Program-made: the position numbers and the translations under genes
Shown: positions 3 through 13,509 of the stretch, piece by piece
Layout: the number at the start of each line of letters is the position of its first letter
How positions within the stretch are numbered: position 1 is the first letter of the stretch
NCBI GenBank assembly: GCA_027438535.1
Contig: DAIAMA010000009.1
Location: forward strand, 1 to 14,822
DNA: 14,822 nt
Source of the DNA: a bacterium
GTDB taxonomy: Bacteria > Pseudomonadota > Gammaproteobacteria > Burkholderiales > Thiobacteraceae
Direction: 5' to 3'
Notes under the pieces: model-generated
The model's input: only the letters and a program-made list of their open reading frames with translations
Database searches by the model: none
Told to the model about the DNA's origin: nothing

Positions 3-1259
3 CTAGTCGGCGAAGACATCGACATGGATATGCTCGAAGCCGAGGGCGAGGGCGCACCAAAACAAGATGACAGCGGCGTTACCGATATCGACGATGCGCC
101 GGTCGTGAAATACCTGCAAAAGGTATTGCTCGATGCCATCAATTCCGGCGTATCGGACATCCACTTCGAACCGTTCGAAAAATTTTACCGCATCCGCTAC
201 CGCTTGGACGGCGTGCTGTACGAAGTCGCCAAACCGCCGCTGGCGATCAAGGACAAAATCTCGTCGCGCATCAAGGTGATCTCCAAGCTCGATATCGCCG
301 AGAAACGCGTGCCGCAAGACGGCCGCATGAAATTGGTACTGTCGAAAAATCGCGCCATCGATTTTCGCGTCAGCACCTTACCCACGCTGTGGGGCGAAAA
401 AATCGTGATGCGGATCTTGGATCCCGCCAGCGCGCAGCTCGGTGTCGATGCCTTGGGCTACGAGCCGGAGCAGAAAGAGGCCTTGCTGAATGCCGTTTCG
501 CGCCCTTACGGCATGGTGCTGGTAACCGGCCCAACCGGTAGCGGAAAAACCGTCTCGCTCTATACTTGCCTCAATATTCTTAACCAGCCCGGCACCAATA
601 TTTCCACCGCGGAAGACCCCGCGGAGATCAACCTGCCGGGCGTGAACCAAGTCAACGTCAATGATAAAGCCGGGCTCACTTTTGCCGCCGCGCTGCGCGC
701 CTTTCTGCGCCAAGACCCGGATGTCATCATGGTGGGCGAGATTCGCGACCTGGAAACCGCCGACATTTCGATCAAGGCCGCCCAGACCGGCCACATGGTG
801 CTCTCGACGCTGCACACCAACGACGCGCCAACCACGCTTACCCGGCTAATGAACATGGGCGTGGCGCCATTCAACATTGCCTCTTCGGTGATCTTGATCA
901 CCGCGCAACGCTTGGCGCGCCGCTTATGCAAGCAGTGCAAAAAGCCTATCGAGGTTCCGCCGGAAGTGCTGCTGCGCGCCGGATTCACCGAGGAAGACCT
1001 GGATGGCAGCTGGCAACCTTACGGCCATGTCGGCTGCGAAGCGTGCAAGGGCACCGGCTACAAAGGCCGCCTCGGCATCTACCAAGTCATGCCGATCACG
1101 GAGGAAATCAGCCGCATCATCATGAAAAACGGCACCGCGATCGATATCGCCGACCAAGCTAAGCGCGAGGGCGTGAAAGATCTGCGCCAATCGGGTTTGC
1201 TGAAAGTAAAAGCAGGCCTTACCTCACTGGAAGAAGTCGAAGCCGTGACCAACGAATAA
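3..1259 (+). CDS. pilB: Type IV pilus assembly ATPase PilB, 5' end missing
   Basis: This is the cytoplasmic hexameric motor that powers pilus extension by hydrolysing ATP beneath the PilC platform. The reading frame is open to the left edge, and about 418 residues are visible against roughly 560-570 for full PilB, so the N-terminal domain lies outside the window. The first ATG at 24 is therefore an internal methionine. Visible motifs in order are the N2-type segment [10 protein letters not shown], Walker A GPTGSGKT (528-551), the Asp-box region around [10 protein letters not shown], Walker B with [12 protein letters not shown] (714-749), and the His box [14 protein letters not shown] four-cysteine zinc element (CKQC, then [13 protein letters not shown]) follows and is typical of PilB/GspE ATPases. 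pilC begins 11 nt downstream and pilD follows, which favours PilB over GspE or the retraction ATPase PilT, which is shorter and lacks the zinc element. Confidence 0.96.
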
Positions 1260-1270
1260 GGGGCACCACC

Positions 1271-2491
1271 ATGGCAGTCGCAACGAGAAAAGCCGTCAAA
1301 GAATTTAATTTCGCCTGGGAAGGCAAGGATAAAAAAGGCAAGGTCATCAAGGGCGATATGCGCGCCAGCGGCGAAGCCGTGGTCAACGCCAACTTGCGCC
1401 GGCAAGGTATTTCTCCGACCAAGGTCAAAAAACAATCGACCTTCGGCCGCGGCAAGAAAATCACCGAAAAAGATATCGCGCTGTTCACGCGCCAATTCGC
1501 CACCATGCTCAAGTCCGGCGTGCCGCTGCTGCAATCCTTCGACATCGTGGCCAAGGGCCATTCCAATCCGGCCGTGGCGCAATTGCTGACCGACGTGAAA
1601 AACGACGTATCGTCCGGCAGCAGCCTGGCACAGGCCTTCGGCAAACGGCCGGTGTACTTCGATGCGCTGTTTTGCAACCTGGTCAATGCCGGCGAGCAAG
1701 CAGGTATTTTGGACGGCGTGCTGGAGCGGCTCGCCACCTATAAAGAAAAAATCATCGCCATCAAGGGTAAGATCAAATCCGCGCTGTTCTACCCCGCCGC
1801 GATCTTGGTGGTGGCCTTCATCATTACCGCCATCATCATGATTTTCGTGATCCCAACCTTCAAGGATTTGTTCAAGAGCTTCGGCGCCGACCTCCCCGCG
1901 CCGACGCTGGTGGTGATCGCGATCTCCGACTTTTTTATCGCTTATTGGTGGGCGATCTTCGGCATTACTATCGGCGGTACCTGGTTTTTCTTCTATAGCT
2001 GGAAACGCTCGAAGAAAATGCAAAACACCATCGACCGCCTTTCTCTCAAACTGCCGGTCTTCGGTGAACTGCTGGAAAAAAGCGCCATCGCGCGCTGGTC
2101 GCGCACGCTGTCGACCATGTTCGCCGCCGGGGTGCCGCTGGTCGAAGCCTTGGAATCCGTCGCCGGTTCCGCGGGCAATCAAGTATTCTTCCATGCCACC
2201 AAACGCATTCAAGGCGAAGTATCCACTGGCACCAACTTGACGGTCGCCATGCAGAACACCAATTTATTCCCCAATATGGTGATCCAGATGGTGCAAATCG
2301 GCGAAGAATCGGGGCAACTCGATTCCATGCTCGGCAAGGTCGCCGATTATTACGATCGCGAAGTGGATGATATCGTCGAGCGCATGTCCGCCTTGCTCGA
2401 GCCTATCATCATGGTAGTGCTCGGCACGTTGATTGGCGGTCTGGTGATTTCCATGTACCTGCCGATCTTCAAAATGGGTCAAGCGATCTAA
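1271..2491 (+). CDS. pilC: Type IV pilus inner-membrane platform protein PilC
   Basis: PilC is the polytopic inner-membrane platform that couples PilB motor movement to pilin insertion. The 406-residue length matches the family. The two repeated T2SSF cytoplasmic domains are visible, one with FTRQFATMLKSGVPLLQSF near residues 72-90 and the second with RWSRTLSTMFAAGVPLVEAL. Hydrophobic segments lie near residues 173-195, near 222-243, and at the C-terminus (IIMVVLGTLIGGLVISMYLP). The N-terminal stretch FAWEGKDKKGKVIKG is typical of pilus PilC rather than GspF. The ATG follows a GGGG purine run about 8 nt upstream. The gene sits 11 nt after pilB and 9 nt before pilD, so the three are almost certainly cotranscribed. 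Confidence 0.97.
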   Translation: MAVATRKAVKEFNFAWEGKDKKGKVIKGDMRASGEAVVNANLRRQGISPTKVKKQSTFGRGKKITEKDIALFTRQFATMLKSGVPLLQSFDIVAKGHSNPAVAQLLTDVKNDVSSGSSLAQAFGKRPVYFDALFCNLVNAGEQAGILDGVLERLATYKEKIIAIKGKIKSALFYPAAILVVAFIITAIIMIFVIPTFKDLFKSFGADLPAPTLVVIAISDFFIAYWWAIFGITIGGTWFFFYSWKRSKKMQNTIDRLSLKLPVFGELLEKSAIARWSRTLSTMFAAGVPLVEALESVAGSAGNQVFFHATKRIQGEVSTGTNLTVAMQNTNLFPNMVIQMVQIGEESGQLDSMLGKVADYYDREVDDIVERMSALLEPIIMVVLGTLIGGLVISMYLPIFKMGQAI

Positions 2492-2500
2492 CGGCCCGGC

Positions 2501-3379
2501 GTGGAAACGTTCCAAGCGGCGCTGGCGCTATTCCGGGATGCACCGCCGGCTCTGTTTGCCGGTTTCGTGCTCGTGCTCGGCCTGCTGATTGGCAGTTTTT
2601 TGAATGTAGTGATTTACCGTCTGCCGAAAATCATGGAGCGCGAATGGAACGTATTCTGCGCCGAACTCGCCGCGCGAGTGGCACCGGCGGCGGAAACATT
2701 CAATCTCGTCACGCCGCGCTCGCGCTGCCCATCTTGCGCGAGTCCGGTGCGCGCCATGGATAATCTACCCCTCCTGAGCTATGTTTTGTTGCGCGGCAAA
2801 TGCCGCCACTGCAACGCCCGCATTTCCATGCGCTACCCTATCGTCGAAGCGCTCACGGGATTGCTTTCCGGCTATGTCGCATGGCGCTTCGGCGTGCAGT
2901 GGACGACCTTGGCCGCGCTGGTGTTTTGCTGGGCACTGATCGCGTTGACCTTCATCGACGCGGACACCCAATTGTTGCCCGATCAAATCACGCAACCCTT
3001 GATTTGGCTCGGGCTATTAGTGAATTCTGGCGGGCTGTTTACCGATCTTGCTTCCGCGCTCATCGGCGCGGTGGCGGGTTATCTCGTGCTGTGGACGATC
3101 TATTGGCTATTCAAGCTCGCCACCGGCAAAGAAGGCATGGGATATGGCGATTTCAAGCTGCTCGCCGCGATCGGCGCTTGGCTGGGTTGGTCCATGCTGC
3201 CGGCGGTGATACTGCTCTCGTCCGCGGTCGGGGCGATCGTCGGCATCGGCCTCATCGCATTGGCGCGCCATGCGCGCAGCCAGCCAATTCCCTTCGGCCC
3301 CTACCTCGCGGGCGGCGGCATCATCGCCCTGTTTTGGGGGCAAAACTTGACCCAGGCTTATCTGGCTTGGCTGCATTGA
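2501..3379 (+). CDS. pilD: Prepilin leader peptidase / N-methyltransferase PilD
   Basis: This bifunctional inner-membrane aspartyl protease cleaves prepilin leader peptides and N-methylates the new N-terminus, serving type IV pili and, where present, type II secretion. The 292-residue protein shows the N-terminal signature GSFLNVVIYRLP (31-42) and a four-cysteine zinc site (C76, C79, C101, C104) that marks the bifunctional form. The catalytic aspartates sit in FIDADTQLLPD (151-161) and in the GxGD-type motif GYGDFK (D217). Several membrane spans follow. Translation appears to start at a GTG, 9 nt after the pilC stop; no in-frame ATG before the conserved N-terminal hydrophobic segment fits better. 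The stop codon overlaps a downstream ATG (TGATG), see the mini-ORF entry. Confidence 0.97.
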   Translation: METFQAALALFRDAPPALFAGFVLVLGLLIGSFLNVVIYRLPKIMEREWNVFCAELAARVAPAAETFNLVTPRSRCPSCASPVRAMDNLPLLSYVLLRGKCRHCNARISMRYPIVEALTGLLSGYVAWRFGVQWTTLAALVFCWALIALTFIDADTQLLPDQITQPLIWLGLLVNSGGLFTDLASALIGAVAGYLVLWTIYWLFKLATGKEGMGYGDFKLLAAIGAWLGWSMLPAVILLSSAVGAIVGIGLIALARHARSQPIPFGPYLAGGGIIALFWGQNLTQAYLAWLH

Positions 3380-9687: not shown

Positions 9688-9717
9688 TTGACAGCGCTTC
9701 TGCACTATATCTATACT
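9688..9717 (+). promoter_or_regulatory. Near-consensus sigma-70 promoter for the rubrerythrin cassette
   Basis: TTGACA (9688-9693, perfect -35) and TATACT (9712-9717, five of six bases of the -10) are separated by 18 nt. Initiation would fall near 9724, giving a leader of about 63 nt before the rubrerythrin start. A second, weaker pair, TTTACA (9721-9726) and TGTTAT (9745-9750), also with an 18-nt spacer, places its -10 inside the palindrome at 9746-9764. The surrounding DNA is clearly more AT-rich than the flanking genes. Confidence 0.7.
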
Positions 9718-9745
9718 ACGTTTACAGATTAGATTTGGTCTAACT

Positions 9746-9764
9746 GTTATAAACTGTTTATAAC
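9746..9764. promoter_or_regulatory. 19-bp palindrome, probable operator upstream of rubrerythrin
   Basis: GTTATAAAC-T-GTTTATAAC is a perfect 9-1-9 inverted repeat between the strong promoter and the ribosome binding site. It overlaps two direct copies of AACTGTT (9742-9748 and 9752-9758) set exactly 10 bp apart. Its size, AT-rich arms and symmetry resemble Fur/PerR-type boxes, but the arms differ from the PerR consensus, so the regulator is unknown. A smaller inverted repeat TTAGA-N5-TCTAA sits just upstream at 9729-9743. No regulator gene lies in the window. Confidence 0.6.
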
Positions 9765-9774
9765 CCTCTTTTTC

Positions 9775-9780
9775 AAGGAG
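9775..9780 (+). promoter_or_regulatory. Strong ribosome binding site of rubrerythrin
   Basis: AAGGAG lies 6 nt before the ATG at 9787 and fixes the start. It is the strongest Shine-Dalgarno match near this cassette apart from those before the DUF3501 and cyclopropane synthase genes. Confidence 0.8.
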
Positions 9781-9786
9781 ATCGCG

Positions 9787-10206
9787 ATGAACCTCAAAGG
9801 CTCCAAAACCTTCGACAATCTTAAAGCCGCATTTGCCGGCGAATCTCAGGCTAACCGCCGTTATTTGTATTTCGCGGCGAAGGCCGACGTAGAAGGCTAT
9901 AACGACGTCGCCGCCGTGTTCCGCTCCACCGCGGAAGGCGAAACCGGACACGCCCACGGCCATTTGGAATATATGGAAGCAGTCGGCGACCCCGCCACCG
10001 GGCTACCGATCGGCGCCACCGGCGACAACCTAAAAGCCGCCATCGCCGGCGAGACCCATGAGTACACCGATATGTACCCAGGCATGGCGAAGTCCGCGCG
10101 CGACGAAGGTTTCGACGAAATCGCCGATTGGTTCGAAACGCTATCCAAAGCCGAACGCTCGCATGCCAACCGCTTCCAGAAGGCGCTGGACACCCTCGGC
10201 AATTAA
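9787..10206 (+). CDS. Rubrerythrin, diiron domain only (no rubredoxin domain)
   Basis: Rubrerythrins are ferritin-like diiron peroxidases that reduce hydrogen peroxide to water in the cytoplasm. The 139-residue four-helix protein keeps all expected ligands: E19, E52 with H55 (ETGH), E89 and E92 (ETHEY), and E123 with H126 (ERSH). It ends at LDTLGN, about where classical rubrerythrin would continue into a C-terminal rubredoxin domain with two CxxC motifs. No such motif is present, and only 89 nt separate it from the next gene, so this is a genuine short form rather than a frameshift. Such short forms occur in aerobic bacteria. The electron donor must be another protein; the iron-sulfur protein encoded next is a candidate. 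It has its own promoter, palindrome and ribosome binding site. Confidence 0.95.
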
Positions 10207-10228
10207 TCGCACTTTAGCGTTCTAGCTT

Positions 10229-10259
10229 ACTGCTTCCGTCCCGCCGGGCCGGAAGCAGT
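10229..10259 (+). terminator. Stem-loop between rubrerythrin and the iron-sulfur gene, possible attenuator
   Basis: ACTGCTTCCG (10229-10238) and CGGAAGCAGT (10250-10259) form a perfect 10-bp stem around an 11-nt GC-rich loop. The 3' flank is TTCCTACC, too poor in T for a confident intrinsic terminator. Because the next gene has only a weak ribosome binding site and no clear promoter, partial termination or 3'-end protection of the rubrerythrin transcript is the likelier use. It would make rubrerythrin more abundant than its partners. Confidence 0.5.
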
Positions 10260-10295
10260 TCCTACCCGTGTATAAATATTGACGAAAGACAAGCA

Positions 10296-11624
10296 ATGAC
10301 CGCGCGTGAAGGCAGTTTAGAAGCCCCTCAGAGACATACGCTTGCCACGGCTAACCCTCTCTTCTGGGACGAGGCGGCGCTCAATCAAGAACTGCATCGG
10401 GTATTCGACATTTGCCACGGCTGCCGCCGCTGCGTGAGCCTGTGCACCTCGTTCCCTACGCTATTCGATTTGGTGGACAATTCTCCCACCCTGGAAATGG
10501 ACGGGGTGAAGACAGAAGATTATTGGCAGGTCGTGGATCAATGCTATTTGTGCGACCTGTGCTTCATGACCAAATGCCCTTACGTGCCGCCACACGAGTG
10601 GGCGCTGGATTTTCCGCATCTGATGCTGCGCGCGAAAGCGATCAAATTCAAAAAAGGCGACACCGCCCTCCGCGACAAGCTGCTCTCCAGCACCGACGCG
10701 ATGGGAAAACTCGCGACCATTCCGGTGGTAGTGCAGACGGTGAATGCGCTGAACAAGACACCGGTGGTGCGCGCCGTGATGGACAGCGCGCTGGGCATCC
10801 ATAAAGATCGCGTGTTGCCGGAATATACGGGGGCGAAATTCCGCGCCCATGCCAAGCCTAATGCCGGTTTCCCGGTCAAACACGGCCAGCGCACGCCGGG
10901 CAAGGTAGCGATCTACGCGACCTGCTACGTGAATTACAACGAGCCGGGCATCGGCCACGATTTGCTGAAGGTGCTGGCGCACAACGAAATCCCGGCGCGG
11001 CTCGTCGAAAAAGAAGCGTGCTGCGGCATGCCGAAATTGGAGTTGGGCGATCTCGATGCCGTGGAGCGGCTCAAGAACGTCAATATTCCTCAACTCGCCA
11101 AGCTGGCGCGCGAAGGTTATGCGATTCTTAGCGCGGTACCCTCGTGCACGCTGATGTACAAACAGGAGTTGCCGCTGATGTTCCCGGACGACGCGGATGT
11201 CAAAGCCGTGGGGGAAGCCATGTGGGATCCGTTCGAATATTTGATGGCGCGCCATCAGGACGGCCTGCTCAAAACCGAATTCAAACAACCGTTGGGTAAA
11301 GTCTCCTATCACATCGCTTGTCATCTGCGGGTGCAGAACATGGGACAGAAAACGCGCGAGATGCTGCAACTGGTACCCGAGACCACCGTGAATACGGTCG
11401 AGCGCTGTTCTGGCCACGACGGTACCTGGGGCGTAAAGTCGGAATTTTTCGCCAACTCCATGAAAATCGGCCGCCCGGTATTCAAGGCCATGGCCAACAA
11501 TACGCCCGACTACATCAGTTCGGACTGCGCGATTGCCGCCCGCCATATCCAGCAAGGCATGGGCGATACACCGGCGCGGAAGGAACACCCGATCACGCTC
11601 ATTCGCCTCGCTTACGGCCTCTAA
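10296..11624 (+). CDS. GlpC/HdrD-like iron-sulfur oxidoreductase with two cysteine-rich domains
   Basis: The 442-residue protein belongs to the large family that includes GlpC, glycolate oxidase GlcF and heterodisulfide reductase HdrD. Its N-terminal part has two 4Fe-4S cluster motifs, C40/C43/C46/C50 (CHGCRRCVSLC) and C83/C86/C89/C94 (CYLCDLCFMTKCP). Two cysteine-rich (CCG) domains follow: the first has C210, CCG at 242-244 and C284, the second C342, C371 and C411. In the second the expected CCG reads CSGHDG, so one ligand cysteine is replaced by serine. No transmembrane segment is evident, so it may be cytoplasmic or bind a membrane partner. No flavoprotein partner gene is nearby, which argues against a classical GlpABC or GlcDEF complex. 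It probably passes electrons to or from a partner such as the adjacent rubrerythrin; that link is inference. The ATG has only a weak GAAAG upstream. Confidence 0.9.
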   Translation: MTAREGSLEAPQRHTLATANPLFWDEAALNQELHRVFDICHGCRRCVSLCTSFPTLFDLVDNSPTLEMDGVKTEDYWQVVDQCYLCDLCFMTKCPYVPPHEWALDFPHLMLRAKAIKFKKGDTALRDKLLSSTDAMGKLATIPVVVQTVNALNKTPVVRAVMDSALGIHKDRVLPEYTGAKFRAHAKPNAGFPVKHGQRTPGKVAIYATCYVNYNEPGIGHDLLKVLAHNEIPARLVEKEACCGMPKLELGDLDAVERLKNVNIPQLAKLAREGYAILSAVPSCTLMYKQELPLMFPDDADVKAVGEAMWDPFEYLMARHQDGLLKTEFKQPLGKVSYHIACHLRVQNMGQKTREMLQLVPETTVNTVERCSGHDGTWGVKSEFFANSMKIGRPVFKAMANNTPDYISSDCAIAARHIQQGMGDTPARKEHPITLIRLAYGL

Positions 11625-11641
11625 TCTAAAAGGAGTAAACC

Positions 11642-12250
11642 ATGCAGACACAGGAGTCCCGCATCATGCCAAAACTCTCTCGAGATCACCTGATGACGCT
11701 TGAAGCCTACGCCAAGGCGCGGCCCGCATTACGCGCGCAAGTCATGGCACACAAGAAAGATCGCACTATCGCCCTGGGCGGCCATGTCACGCTCATTTTT
11801 GAAGACCAGCTCACCATCCGCTATCAAATTCAGGAAATGCTGCGCGTCGAACGCATTTTCGAGGAAGCCGGCATTCAAGACGAACTGGACGCCTACAACC
11901 CGCTCATTCCCGATGGGACTAATTGGAAAGTCACGATGCTGATCGAGTACCCCGACGTGAGCGAGCGCCAAGCCATGCTTTCGCGCTTGAAGGGCATCGA
12001 GGGCCGGGTCTGGGTGCAGGCGGCGGGGCAGAAAAAAATCTACGCCATTGCCGACGAAGACCTGGAACGTGCCAACGAGGAAAAAACCTCCGCCGTGCAT
12101 TTTCTGCGCATCGAACTCGATGCCGCCAGCATTGCCGCGATCAAGCAAGGGGCCGCCATCGCCATCGGGGTCGAGCATCCGGAATACACGGCGCAGATCG
12201 CCGCGCTGCCAGAGCATGTGCGCAGCTCGCTTGCCCAAGATTTGGCTTAA
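11642..12250 (+). CDS. DUF3501 family protein of unknown function
   Basis: The 202-residue soluble protein is recognised as DUF3501 from its KLSRDHLMTLEAYAKAR start and the segment FEDQLTIRYQIQEMLRVERIFEE. Further marks are the YNPLIPDGTNWKVTMLIEYPD stretch and a C-terminal half that ends EYTAQIAALPEHVRSSLAQDLA. There are no signal peptide, membrane segments, or cysteines, so it is unlikely to carry an iron-sulfur cluster itself. The ATG at 11642 is supported by AAGGAG about 7 nt upstream; an internal Met at residue 9 is an alternative. It starts 17 nt after the iron-sulfur gene and is therefore its operon partner. DUF3501 genes commonly follow such iron-sulfur and rubrerythrin genes. A role in assembling or regulating that complex is plausible but unproven. 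Confidence 0.9.
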   Translation: MQTQESRIMPKLSRDHLMTLEAYAKARPALRAQVMAHKKDRTIALGGHVTLIFEDQLTIRYQIQEMLRVERIFEEAGIQDELDAYNPLIPDGTNWKVTMLIEYPDVSERQAMLSRLKGIEGRVWVQAAGQKKIYAIADEDLERANEEKTSAVHFLRIELDAASIAAIKQGAAIAIGVEHPEYTAQIAALPEHVRSSLAQDLA

Positions 12251-12300: not shown

Positions 12301-13509
12301 ATGCTGCAAAACCAGATACTCAAAATGGTGGAAGGCCGTCTGCGCCGCCTGCGCCTGCCGGTTGCGCTAGAATTGTGGAACGGCCAGGCGTTGCGCTTCG
12401 CCGACTACCCCACTGTTACCTTAAAGGTTAACAAACCCCAAGCGCTGCTCAATTTCGCCAAGCCCAGCCTGGGCAAACTGGCCAGGAGCTACGTCGAGCG
12501 CGGCTTTGATTTCAAAGGCCCCACGCGCGACATCATCAACCTGGGCGAGCATTTGTGCGAAAACGAAGTGCTCGTGGATAAAAAAGCCAGTCGCGCACTG
12601 TCCTGGTGGAAGCATTCCAAACCCGCCGACCGCAAGAACATCAGCCACCACTACGATGTCTCCAACGACTTCTACGCCTTATGGCTGGATCAACGGCGCG
12701 CGTACTCCTGCGCCTACTTCAAGCAGGCAGACGATACCTTGGAGCATGCCCAAGAGCAAAAGCTCGAACACATCTGCCGCAAGCTCGACCTCAAGCCGGG
12801 TGAACGCTTGCTCGACATCGGTTGCGGCTGGGGCGGACTCGTCCTGTGGGCGGCCGAACACCATGGCGTGCACGCCACAGGCATCACCCTCAGTCAAAAT
12901 CAGCACGACTATGTACAGACGCAAATCCAAGCGCGCGGCTTGCAAGATCGCATTGCCGTACATCTCATGGATTACCGGGATGTTCCCGAGGACGTGCCCT
13001 ACGACAAAATCGCCTCGGTCGGCATGTTCGAACATGTCGGGCGCCATAACCTGGCCAAATATTTCGCGAAAATTTATCGGCTGCTGAAACCGGGCGGGCT
13101 GGTCATGAACCATGGCATCACTTCCAGCGGCCTTGATACGCAAGGCCTGGGAAGCGGCATCAGCGACTTCATCGACGAATACGTTTTTCCGGGCGGCGAG
13201 CTGGTGCATGTATCGCATGTGATCGAATCGCTCTCCGCTCACGGCCTCGAATGCTGGGACGTGGAATGCCTGCGCCCGCACTATGCGCGCACGCTATGGC
13301 ACTGGGTAGACCGGCTGGAAGCGCATGAGACGCAAGCGAAAGAGATAGTCGGCGAAGAAAAATACCGTATCTGGCAAATCTATATGGCCGGTTCGGCGCA
13401 TGCCTTCGAGCGCGGCTGGATGTCGATTTTCCAAATCCTCGGCGGCAAGCCATTGGCGAATGGGACCATGCCGTATCCGCTGACGCGGGAGCATGTTTAT
13501 CAGGCGTAG
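12301..13509 (+). CDS. cfa: Cyclopropane-fatty-acyl-phospholipid synthase
   Basis: This SAM-dependent enzyme adds a methylene bridge across cis double bonds of membrane phospholipid acyl chains, a late-growth and stress response. The 402-residue protein shows an N-terminal lipid-binding region and the segment NISHHYDVSNDFYALWLD (113-130). The catalytic YSCAYF has C137, and SAM-binding loop LDIGCGWGG spans 171-179. Bicarbonate-site residues appear as E244 (MFEHVG) and H271 (NHGIT), and DEYVFPGGEL follows. The start at 12301 follows GGAGGGGGAG (12288-12297). The same frame is open back to 11923, but that part lies over DUF3501 and is not conserved. It begins 50 nt after DUF3501, so it may share that transcript. 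A TATACT at 12270-12275 could instead be its own -10 box, though its -35 is poor. A small repeat GTTA-CA-TAAC lies at 12278-12287. Confidence 0.95.
   Translation: MLQNQILKMVEGRLRRLRLPVALELWNGQALRFADYPTVTLKVNKPQALLNFAKPSLGKLARSYVERGFDFKGPTRDIINLGEHLCENEVLVDKKASRALSWWKHSKPADRKNISHHYDVSNDFYALWLDQRRAYSCAYFKQADDTLEHAQEQKLEHICRKLDLKPGERLLDIGCGWGGLVLWAAEHHGVHATGITLSQNQHDYVQTQIQARGLQDRIAVHLMDYRDVPEDVPYDKIASVGMFEHVGRHNLAKYFAKIYRLLKPGGLVMNHGITSSGLDTQGLGSGISDFIDEYVFPGGELVHVSHVIESLSAHGLECWDVECLRPHYARTLWHWVDRLEAHETQAKEIVGEEKYRIWQIYMAGSAHAFERGWMSIFQILGGKPLANGTMPYPLTREHVYQA

What the first reader, a model, noticed from the sequence alone, without database searches (positions are those of the whole stretch)
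9688..12250. Rubredoxin-less rubrerythrin, CCG-type iron-sulfur protein and DUF3501: a candidate peroxide-reduction module
Seen: three adjacent same-strand genes behind one strong promoter. The rubrerythrin has all seven diiron ligands but no rubredoxin domain. The next protein has two 4Fe-4S motifs and two cysteine-rich domains but no flavoprotein partner, and DUF3501 has no known function. Known: diiron peroxidases need an electron donor, and the GlpC/HdrD family shuttles electrons between clusters and partners, some via quinones. Inference: the iron-sulfur protein may serve as the missing reductase, with DUF3501 as an assembly or regulatory subunit. The gene association recurs in other bacteria, but I know of no biochemical description of the three as one system.
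Basis: partly seen in the sequence, partly recalled or inferred. Interest (0 to 1): 0.75.

Follow-up and report, generated by a model that had tools for sequence, protein, structure and literature searches.

The report
Known three-gene peroxide-defence operon
Three neighbouring bacterial genes encode a small iron enzyme that probably destroys peroxide, an iron-sulfur protein that probably feeds it electrons, and a helper of unknown role; the trio has been described before, and this work adds likely DNA control sites for it.

Summary
In detail: RBR (9787-10206), a GlpC-like iron-sulfur protein (10296-11624) and DUF3501 (11642-12250) follow one promoter. The association is not new: Cardenas et al. 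2016 (PMC5114695) described this 'aerobic-type rubrerythrin' trio, named the iron-sulfur protein RFO and proposed that it replaces rubredoxin. I found no biochemical description of the three together (search; passages of four of five papers). Added here, from sequence: (1) in 299 genomes of the phylum, DUF3501, RFO and this RBR type occur in the same 22, side by side; (2) five loci with RBR+DUF3501 but no adjacent RFO all have an RFO elsewhere in the genome; (3) 87 of 87 RFOs keep 15 Cys and His374 but lack two of GlpC's five Cys in the second CCG domain; (4) a palindrome TTAGA-N5-TCTAA lies just after the -10 box (9729-9743) and also precedes an Irr-like Fur-family gene in relatives, while loci without it often carry OxyR-type sites; (5) a hairpin separates RBR and RFO. 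Best reading: a peroxide/iron-controlled diiron peroxidase, RFO as electron relay, DUF3501 as adaptor. Electron path and DUF3501 role are inference; FNR alone supports a related enzyme in vitro.

The parts
9688..9717 (+). sigma-70-like promoter of the operon, TTGACA-18-TATACT
   Evidence: 11 of 12 matches, not above chance by consensus alone; same layout by eye in congeners printed
9729..9743 (.). operator palindrome TTAGATTTGGTCTAA, starting 12 bases after the end of the -10 box; proposed site of an Irr-like Fur-family repressor
   Evidence: TTAGA-N5-TCTAA exact in 37 of 87 RBR upstreams, 0.03 expected; the only hit of TTAGAYTNNGTCTAA in this genome; same box upstream of irr-like genes of relatives
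9787..10206 (+). RBR, aerobic-type (rubredoxin-less) rubrerythrin, 139 aa
   Evidence: PDB relatives 9onm, 4di0 and sulerythrin 1j30
10229..10259 (+). mRNA hairpin between RBR and RFO without T-tract; possible RBR-favouring processing or stabilising element
   Evidence: 70 of 83 RBR-RFO gaps with z below -2 (65 of 83 with other shuffles) against 8 of 82, 10 of 84 and 12 of 77 in three control regions
10296..11624 (+). [quoted passage not shown] Cys 40/43/46/50, 83/86/89/94, 210/242/243/284, 342/371/411, plus His374
11642..12250 (+). DUF3501 protein, 202 aa (most aligned homologues start at the internal Met9, 11666)
   Evidence: solved relative 3fjv
12301..13509 (+). cyclopropane fatty-acid synthase-like gene, probable fourth gene of the transcription unit in this lineage
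   Evidence: PF02353, 338 bits; in 13 of the 30 short loci (the window's own included) and 12 of 80 named loci

Best explanation
This is one copy of the published aerobic-type rubrerythrin system. RBR is a Cys-free diiron peroxidase that turns H2O2, and probably organic hydroperoxides, into water. RFO is a soluble GlpC-type relay (two ferredoxin-like [4Fe-4S] sites, one four-Cys CCG site, one remodelled three-Cys CCG site with an invariant His) that takes electrons from a general reductant, a flavoprotein or the quinol pool, and passes them to RBR in place of a rubredoxin domain. DUF3501, which has no conserved Cys, is an adaptor that holds RFO and RBR together. The operon is switched by a repressor of the Irr-like Fur family at a palindrome over the transcription start, so it should be on when iron/haem or peroxide inactivates the repressor; other lineages seem to use OxyR instead. 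A hairpin after RBR probably lets RBR be made in excess of RFO and DUF3501. Shown: genes, conserved residues, co-occurrence, operator-like sites, hairpin. Inferred: electron path, adaptor role, repressor identity and its signal in this organism, peroxidase activity of this copy.
For: Same 22 of 299 genomes for all three, on the same contig with gaps under 600 bases (hypergeometric 8.5e-34, ignoring kinship). 63 of 80 named DUF3501 loci have the complete trio; of the other 17, 10 are cut by contig ends, 5 have RBR+DUF3501 only, one (L097) has a masked stretch, one (L040) a split RFO. The 7 genomes behind those 5 plus L040 and L097 all contain RFO: of the five, two have a second, complete trio (L227, L229), one an RBR-RFO pair (L224), and two a lone RFO with its own OxyR-type half-site (L225, 1 mismatch; L226, none). 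RFO-DUF3501 fusions: P0078, P0081, P0109, P0114 among the 120 listed and L086, a Nitrosomonas MAG. 22 of 27 examined non-trio RBR-like places carry a rubredoxin Cys pair; the 15 aligned trio-type RBRs have no CxxC. Operators. OxyR-type regulator, catalase, RBR and DUF3501 in a row in L087 and L091. Literature: ferriperoxin reduces peroxides (PMC3317640); sulerythrin reacts fast with H2O2 and very slowly with O2 (PMC12851003).
Against: Ferriperoxin works in vitro with NADPH and FNR (PMC3317640). Thermoproteales reportedly lack RFO but have RBR and DUF3501 (PMC5114695). 5 of 27 examined non-trio places are rubredoxin-less RBR-like proteins in genomes without RFO. No structure or co-fold could be made. 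For the regulator: the window's own genome (66% complete) and G001 (91%) and G009 (99%) have the box but no detected irr-like gene; in the phylum sample Irr-family genes are only weakly associated with the trio, 10 of 22 against 64 of 277 (p 0.036); irr-like genes L209, L216, L219 and L220 in DUF3501 genomes lack the box. In Pelagibacter a rubrerythrin transcript rose 1.57-fold on iron limitation (PMC2864753), the opposite of simple Irr repression at low iron; which RBR type that is I did not check.
Confidence: 0.66

Rival explanations
1. RBR receives its electrons from a general FNR-type flavoprotein; RFO and DUF3501 serve maturation or repair, for example reloading or reductive reactivation of the diiron site after over-oxidation.
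For: FNR plus NADPH supports ferriperoxin in vitro (PMC3317640). DUF3501 has no conserved Cys but invariant His37, His153, His179 and many acidic residues, which could hold iron. An FNR-type flavoprotein gene lies divergently upstream in 7 of 80 loci (Pfam checked on one, L065).
Against: RFO has a full set of electron-transfer motifs and was found in each of the 22 trio genomes and in each of 7 genomes checked for exceptions. The flavoprotein neighbours come from a narrow set of loci, mostly labelled Thiobacillus.
Confidence: 0.21
2. The operon is mainly an iron-detoxification module: RBR acts as ferroxidase or iron buffer, alongside a ferritin, and peroxide is its oxidant.
For: Irr-like control, since Irr governs bacterioferritin and a rubrerythrin-like gene in alphaproteobacteria (PMC3413700); an EncFtn-like ferritin gene between RFO and DUF3501 in 7 of 80 loci and in five congeners of the window.
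Against: No such gene was clustered in the other 73 of 80 loci (some cut by contig ends), the window lacks it, OxyR-type half-sites stand in for the box in many other loci, and an Fe-S reductase has no obvious use in a ferroxidase.
Confidence: 0.1
3. The system is an oxygen reductase, with RBR as terminal O2-reducing site.
For: Occurrence in aerobes (PMC5114695).
Against: Sulerythrin, a relative (8e-51), reacts rapidly with H2O2 and very slowly with O2 (PMC12851003).
Confidence: 0.02
4. Chance neighbourhood without functional link.
For: None found.
Against: Identical 22 of 299 genomes, RFO present where not adjacent, fusions.
Confidence: 0.01

Closest known systems
Aerobic-type rubrerythrin system, RBR + RFO + DUF3501 (Cardenas et al. 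2016, PMC5114695; mitochondrial version in Andalucia, PMC7050145)
   Same: Same three families, same adjacency, same lack of rubredoxin, same proposed electron role of RFO; RFO-DUF3501 fusion known from Nitrosomonas.
   Different: No difference in kind. Irr, PerR, OxyR, cyclopropane and promoter do not occur in its held main text (word search). I saw its abstract, outline and passages, not the whole text, so the Cys/His signature and the hairpin may have been noted there.
Ferriperoxin of Hydrogenobacter thermophilus (PMC3317640) and sulerythrin of Sulfolobus
   Same: Single-domain diiron proteins of about this size; ferriperoxin is a proven peroxidase and was needed for aerobic growth.
   Different: Ferriperoxin was assayed with FNR; in the parts I read RFO and DUF3501 were not tested. 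The window's RBR has not been assayed.
GlpC, subunit of anaerobic glycerol-3-phosphate dehydrogenase (E. coli K-12)
   Same: 30% identity over 335 residues, same order of 4Fe-4S and CCG domains.
   Different: RFO scores below the GlpC cut-offs, has a conserved N-terminal extension, lacks Cys at 372 and 414, has invariant His374, and none of the neighbouring genes scanned is glpA- or glpB-like.
Irr-controlled rubrerythrin-like and bacterioferritin genes of alphaproteobacteria (PMC3413700, passages)
   Same: Fur-family Irr protein, binding site at the transcription start, target of the rubrerythrin superfamily.
   Different: MbfA is another, membrane-linked rubrerythrin-like protein (recalled); here the target is the trio in Betaproteobacteria, and the Irr-like proteins score below the Irr equivalog cut-off (127 against 150).

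Membership tests
Aerobic-type rubrerythrin system (RBR-RFO-DUF3501) | rubrerythrin without rubredoxin domain, diiron ligands kept | tested here: met
   no Cys, seven ligand positions invariant
Aerobic-type rubrerythrin system (RBR-RFO-DUF3501) | co-located DUF3501 gene (PF12007) | tested here: met
   247.6 bits against cut-off 25
Aerobic-type rubrerythrin system (RBR-RFO-DUF3501) | co-located COG0247-type Fe-S oxidoreductase with CCG domain | tested here: met
   PF02754 50.8 bits against cut-off 20.6
Aerobic-type rubrerythrin system (RBR-RFO-DUF3501) | peroxide reduction by the assembled system | not testable with these tools
   needs purified proteins; not shown for any member in what I read
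Classical two-domain rubrerythrin | C-terminal rubredoxin domain CxxC...CxxC | tested here: not met
   NF045767 134.9 bits against cut-off 200
GlpC | score over the GlpC equivalog cut-offs | tested here: not met
   TIGR03379 187.4 of 279.9; NF008369 235 of 278
GlpC | second CCG domain with five Cys, as in E. coli GlpC | tested here: not met
   positions 372 and 414 not Cys in 87 of 87
Ferriperoxin/sulerythrin | single-domain RBR of about 140 aa similar to sulerythrin | tested here: met
   E 8e-51
Ferriperoxin/sulerythrin | NADPH-FNR-dependent peroxidase activity | not testable with these tools
   needs assay
Irr (regulator, in relatives of the window) | score over the Irr equivalog cut-offs | tested here: not met
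   L155 scores NF045678 127 of 150, NF045677 119 of 170; these are its best-matching models, so it is called Irr-like
Irr (regulator, in relatives of the window) | binding to the box | not testable with these tools
   inferred from the box upstream of the irr-like genes and from Irr-family genes next to the trio in 5 genomes

The most novel reading that the evidence does not exclude
In Betaproteobacteria the trio is the main target of a small self-controlled Irr-like regulator, swapped for OxyR in other lineages, and RFO is a distinct kind of CCG reductase whose second cluster site is held by three Cys and a His and feeds a diiron peroxidase directly, with DUF3501 as coupling subunit. That would be a dedicated Fe-S-cluster-driven peroxidase of aerobic bacteria and, by inheritance, of early mitochondria.
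Probability: 0.35. Interest if true: 0.65.

Novelty: already known. Interest (0 to 1): 0.42.

Why it matters
The trio was named in 2016 and traced by others to early mitochondria, yet its electron donor and the role of DUF3501 are still open in what I could read. The operator sites give physiology a handle: expression should answer to iron and to peroxide. RFO is present even in genomes where it is not next to RBR-DUF3501, which argues that RBR needs it in the cell, although FNR supports a related enzyme in the test tube. The His374 and missing-Cys signature names residues to test.

Tried and rejected
RBR-DUF3501 fusions: a search with the two window proteins joined end to end listed P0124 and P0142 with both domains among its best 120. 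Their sequences contain garbled stretches typical of frameshifts, so I do not count them. P0121 and P0126 are repeated RBR pieces and were set aside.

'RBR+DUF3501 without RFO' as a natural counter-example: not borne out for the five loci found, since each genome has an RFO. But only two of the five have a truly lone RFO; two have a second, complete trio and one an RBR-RFO pair.

Absence of rubredoxin as a perfect predictor of RFO: rejected, 5 of 27 examined non-trio places break it (one search lists 32 such places in 27 genomes, I fetched 27; my first motif had the wrong Cys spacing and found none, corrected).

Canonical Fur as owner of the box: not tested; I did not score the upstreams of the canonical fur genes.

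DUF3501 and ribosomal uL10m: weak sequence matches (E 0.016-0.7), taken as chance.

Promoter by consensus alone: not significant.

Statistics to read with care. The 80 named loci are the best of 591 relatives, so they lean to close relatives of the window. One search scored 34 irr-like loci at 45% identity or more, of which 7 are second copies of the same gene; without them 19 of 27 have the box with at most one mismatch and 20 of 27 with at most two (deduplicated by hand from the rows). In one search, 92 loci matched RFO; 86 passed my length and ambiguity filter and, with the window, make 87. In one search two of 84 RBR upstreams were dropped for length or unknown bases. The backward-read control pattern gave 3 sites in 2 of 31 genomes.
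Full report
WHAT IS THERE. The window holds, on the + strand, RBR (9787-10206, 139 aa), an iron-sulfur protein (10296-11624, 442 aa) and DUF3501 (11642-12250, 202 aa), followed by a cyclopropane fatty-acid synthase-like gene (12301-13509). The promoter TTGACA-18-TATACT lies at 9688-9717. RBR has no Cys and keeps the seven diiron ligand positions, invariant in 15 aligned sequences (which positions are ligands is recalled). Its closest solved relatives are named rubrerythrin (9onm, 4di0) and sulerythrin. DUF3501 has a solved relative, 3fjv, deposited as 'uncharacterized novel protein'.

IT IS A KNOWN TRIO. Cardenas, Quatrini and Holmes 2016 (PMC5114695; I saw the abstract, the outline and passages) describe an 'aerobic-type' rubrerythrin lineage without rubredoxin, co-located with DUF3501 and a COG0247 protein which they name RFO. 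They report the triple in 185 of 4461 genomes, an RFO-DUF3501 fusion in Nitrosomonas, and suggest that RFO compensates for the missing rubredoxin. Passages of PMC7050145 report the three-component system, with predicted mitochondrial targeting, in Andalucia and further eukaryotes; a passage of PMC12699882 repeats this. Passages of PMC7852563 report the operon beside OxyR, with a ferritin-like 'DPS' gene, in Sideroxydans; passages of PMC7760498 report the cluster in Acidihalobacter; passages of PMC7465337 review it. Five papers in the held library contain 'DUF3501'; I read passages of four, and saw PMC3597751 only as a listing. None of what I read describes the three biochemically as one system. 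Most subscription papers are not in that library.

CO-OCCURRENCE. In 299 genomes of the phylum (292 of them at least 90% complete with at most 5% contamination; the window's own, 66%, is included) DUF3501 is in 22, RFO at E at most 1e-60 in 22, and RBR of this type (over 260 bits; the next match has 168) in 22. They are the same 22, from 22 genera, with the three genes on one contig in the order RBR-RFO-DUF3501 and gaps under 600 bases (hypergeometric 8.5e-34; relatedness ignored). One search lists 48 genomes with any RBR match at E at most 1e-15; the other 26 have neither DUF3501 nor RFO at the limits used. I examined 27 of the 32 non-trio places listed (one in each of those 26 genomes, one in trio genome G069): 22 of 27 carry a rubredoxin Cys pair, 5 do not, so 'no rubredoxin, hence RFO' has exceptions. 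Among 80 named DUF3501 loci, 63 have the complete trio; 5 have RBR+DUF3501 without RFO; 10 are cut by contig ends; one has a masked stretch (L097) and one a split RFO (L040). The 7 genomes behind these 5 and two all contain RFO. Of the five, two hold a second, complete trio, one an RBR-RFO pair, and two a lone RFO (no RBR or DUF3501 within about 1.5 kb) whose upstream has an OxyR-type half-site, with 1 and 0 mismatches (L225, L226). RFO-DUF3501 fusions occur in 4 of the 120 proteins listed and in L086, a Nitrosomonas MAG. A listing also shows RFO on large Burkholderia replicons (4 records).

RFO IS A DISTINCT GlpC RELATIVE. It matches E. coli GlpC at 30% over 335 residues but stays below the GlpC cut-offs. 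In 87 of 87 RFOs kept for the count the 15 Cys listed under parts and His374 are invariant; residue 372 is Ser (72) or Ala (15), and 414 is Ala (85) or Gly (2). GlpC has Cys at both places. GlcF and YkgE have Cys at both as well, but not at the place of Cys411. So the second CCG site of RFO has only three Cys, plus a conserved His: a possible unusual cluster site. That is inference; no structure could be predicted, and no solved relative of RFO was found by profile.

CONTROL SITES. Of 87 RBR upstream stretches (the window and 86 of loci L031-L130), 37 contain TTAGA-N5-TCTAA exactly and 11 more with one mismatch; 0.03 and 0.76 are expected from shuffles, 0.01 and 0.51 from a first-order Markov model. 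The window copy is 9729-9743, starting 12 bases after the -10 box ends, as expected for a repressor site. The stricter pattern TTAGAYTNNGTCTAA hits 12 of 31 genomes at one place each. By coordinates 9 of these 12 places lie 1.9 to 2.4 kb upstream of DUF3501; G003 is a broken-contig case beside the EncFtn-like gene, and G007 (70% complete) and G013 have no detected DUF3501. The pattern read backwards gave 3 sites in 2 genomes. Among the 39 upstreams without the box (more than one mismatch), 24 have an OxyR half-site ATAG-N7-CTAT with at most one mismatch (1.5 expected); among the 48 with it, 4 (3.6 expected). The OxyR consensus is recalled.

THE REGULATOR. Relatives encode an Irr-like Fur-family protein (best NCBIfam model IrrA, 127 bits, cut-off 150). 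Of 34 irr-like loci with at least 45% identity to L155, 24 have the box upstream with at most one mismatch (0.14 expected); 7 are duplicates, leaving 19 of 27. Of 29 more distant Irr-family loci 1 does (0.13 expected). Among 60 relatives the irr-like gene is in 26 of 37 DUF3501 genomes and 3 of 23 others (p 1.6e-5; one of the three is G007, which has the box). In the phylum sample the association is weak: 10 of 22 against 64 of 277 (p 0.036). But in 5 of the 22 trio genomes (G067, G075, G090, G190, G312) an Irr-family match lies directly upstream of RBR on the same strand, 123 to 282 bases from match to match (the G190 match contains one stop codon). Against: the window's own genome, G001 (91%) and G009 (99%) have the box without a detected irr-like gene. 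In alphaproteobacteria Irr represses genes at low iron, including a rubrerythrin-like one, and irr deletion raised peroxide resistance in Rhodobacter (PMC3413700, start of abstract and passages). Also against simple Irr logic, a Pelagibacter rubrerythrin transcript rose 1.57-fold on iron limitation (PMC2864753, passages). The genome-wide Irr-box paper that I recall (Rodionov 2006) is not held. Papers with Irr, rubrerythrin and Betaproteobacteria together: none. So these searches did not find the link in print; I cannot say it is unpublished.

HAIRPIN. The RBR-RFO gap folds better than shuffles (z below -2) in 70 of 83 loci (mean z -3.57), against 8 of 82 upstream of RBR, 10 of 84 inside RFO and 12 of 77 after DUF3501; only 7 of 82 main hairpins are followed by a T-tract. 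A first run with other shuffles gave 65 of 83, where the printed examples show different sequences. A processing or stabilising role that raises RBR over RFO is inference.

HOW IT PROBABLY WORKS. RBR reduces peroxide; RFO delivers electrons; DUF3501 couples them: it stays with RBR at the five loci where RFO is not adjacent, and it is fused to RFO in others. The strongest counter-evidence is ferriperoxin of Hydrogenobacter: NADPH and FNR supported its peroxidase activity, and its gene was needed for aerobic growth (PMC3317640: abstract, passages and the Discussion). RFO and DUF3501 are not mentioned as tested in the parts I read. The donor for RFO is unknown. A divergent FNR-type flavoprotein and MsrB lie upstream in 7 of 80 loci (Pfam checked on L065), a lead limited to a narrow group.

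VERDICT.

Noticed in passing
L031:5680-5976, also L032, L037, L042, L066, L083, L099; congeners G001, G002, G004, G005, G006: An EncFtn-like ferritin gene (PF22277, checked on L031, L066, L099) sits between RFO and DUF3501 or directly before DUF3501 in 7 of 80 named loci and in the congeners listed; the window has only a short gap there. PMC7852563 mentions a ferritin-like 'DPS' gene in a similar operon, possibly the same family.
   Followed up: partly
window 12301-13509: Cyclopropane fatty-acid synthase-like gene 50 bases after DUF3501, conserved next to the trio in several lineages (13 of 30 short loci, the window's own included; 12 of 80 named loci).
   Followed up: partly
L033, L038, L042, L045, L056, L065, L067: Divergent MsrB plus FNR-type flavoprotein upstream of the trio (Pfam checked on L065), a possible electron source.
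   Followed up: no
L087:2762-6600, L091:2740-6579: OxyR-type regulator, catalase, RBR and DUF3501 in a row without RFO (Pfam checked on L091); a complete trio lies elsewhere in the same genomes (L227, L229).
   Followed up: partly
L233 (G258:C4:964000-967500): Rubredoxin-less RBR in a genome without detected DUF3501 or RFO, directly after an Irr-family match.
   Followed up: partly
G354:C1:491779-492618 and 1197846-1198313: RFO appears split into two distant pieces in a one-contig MAG chromosome; misassembly or rearrangement.
   Followed up: no
33 of 80 named loci, e.g. L075:6612-7148: CNP1-like secreted protein gene (PF08750, checked on L075) in the flank downstream of DUF3501; L27/L21-type ribosomal protein genes and an Obg-like gene (named by eye) also recur in the flanks.
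   Followed up: no
window 24-3379: Type IV pilus-type assembly genes by appearance (ATPase, inner-membrane protein, prepilin peptidase), named by eye only.
   Followed up: no
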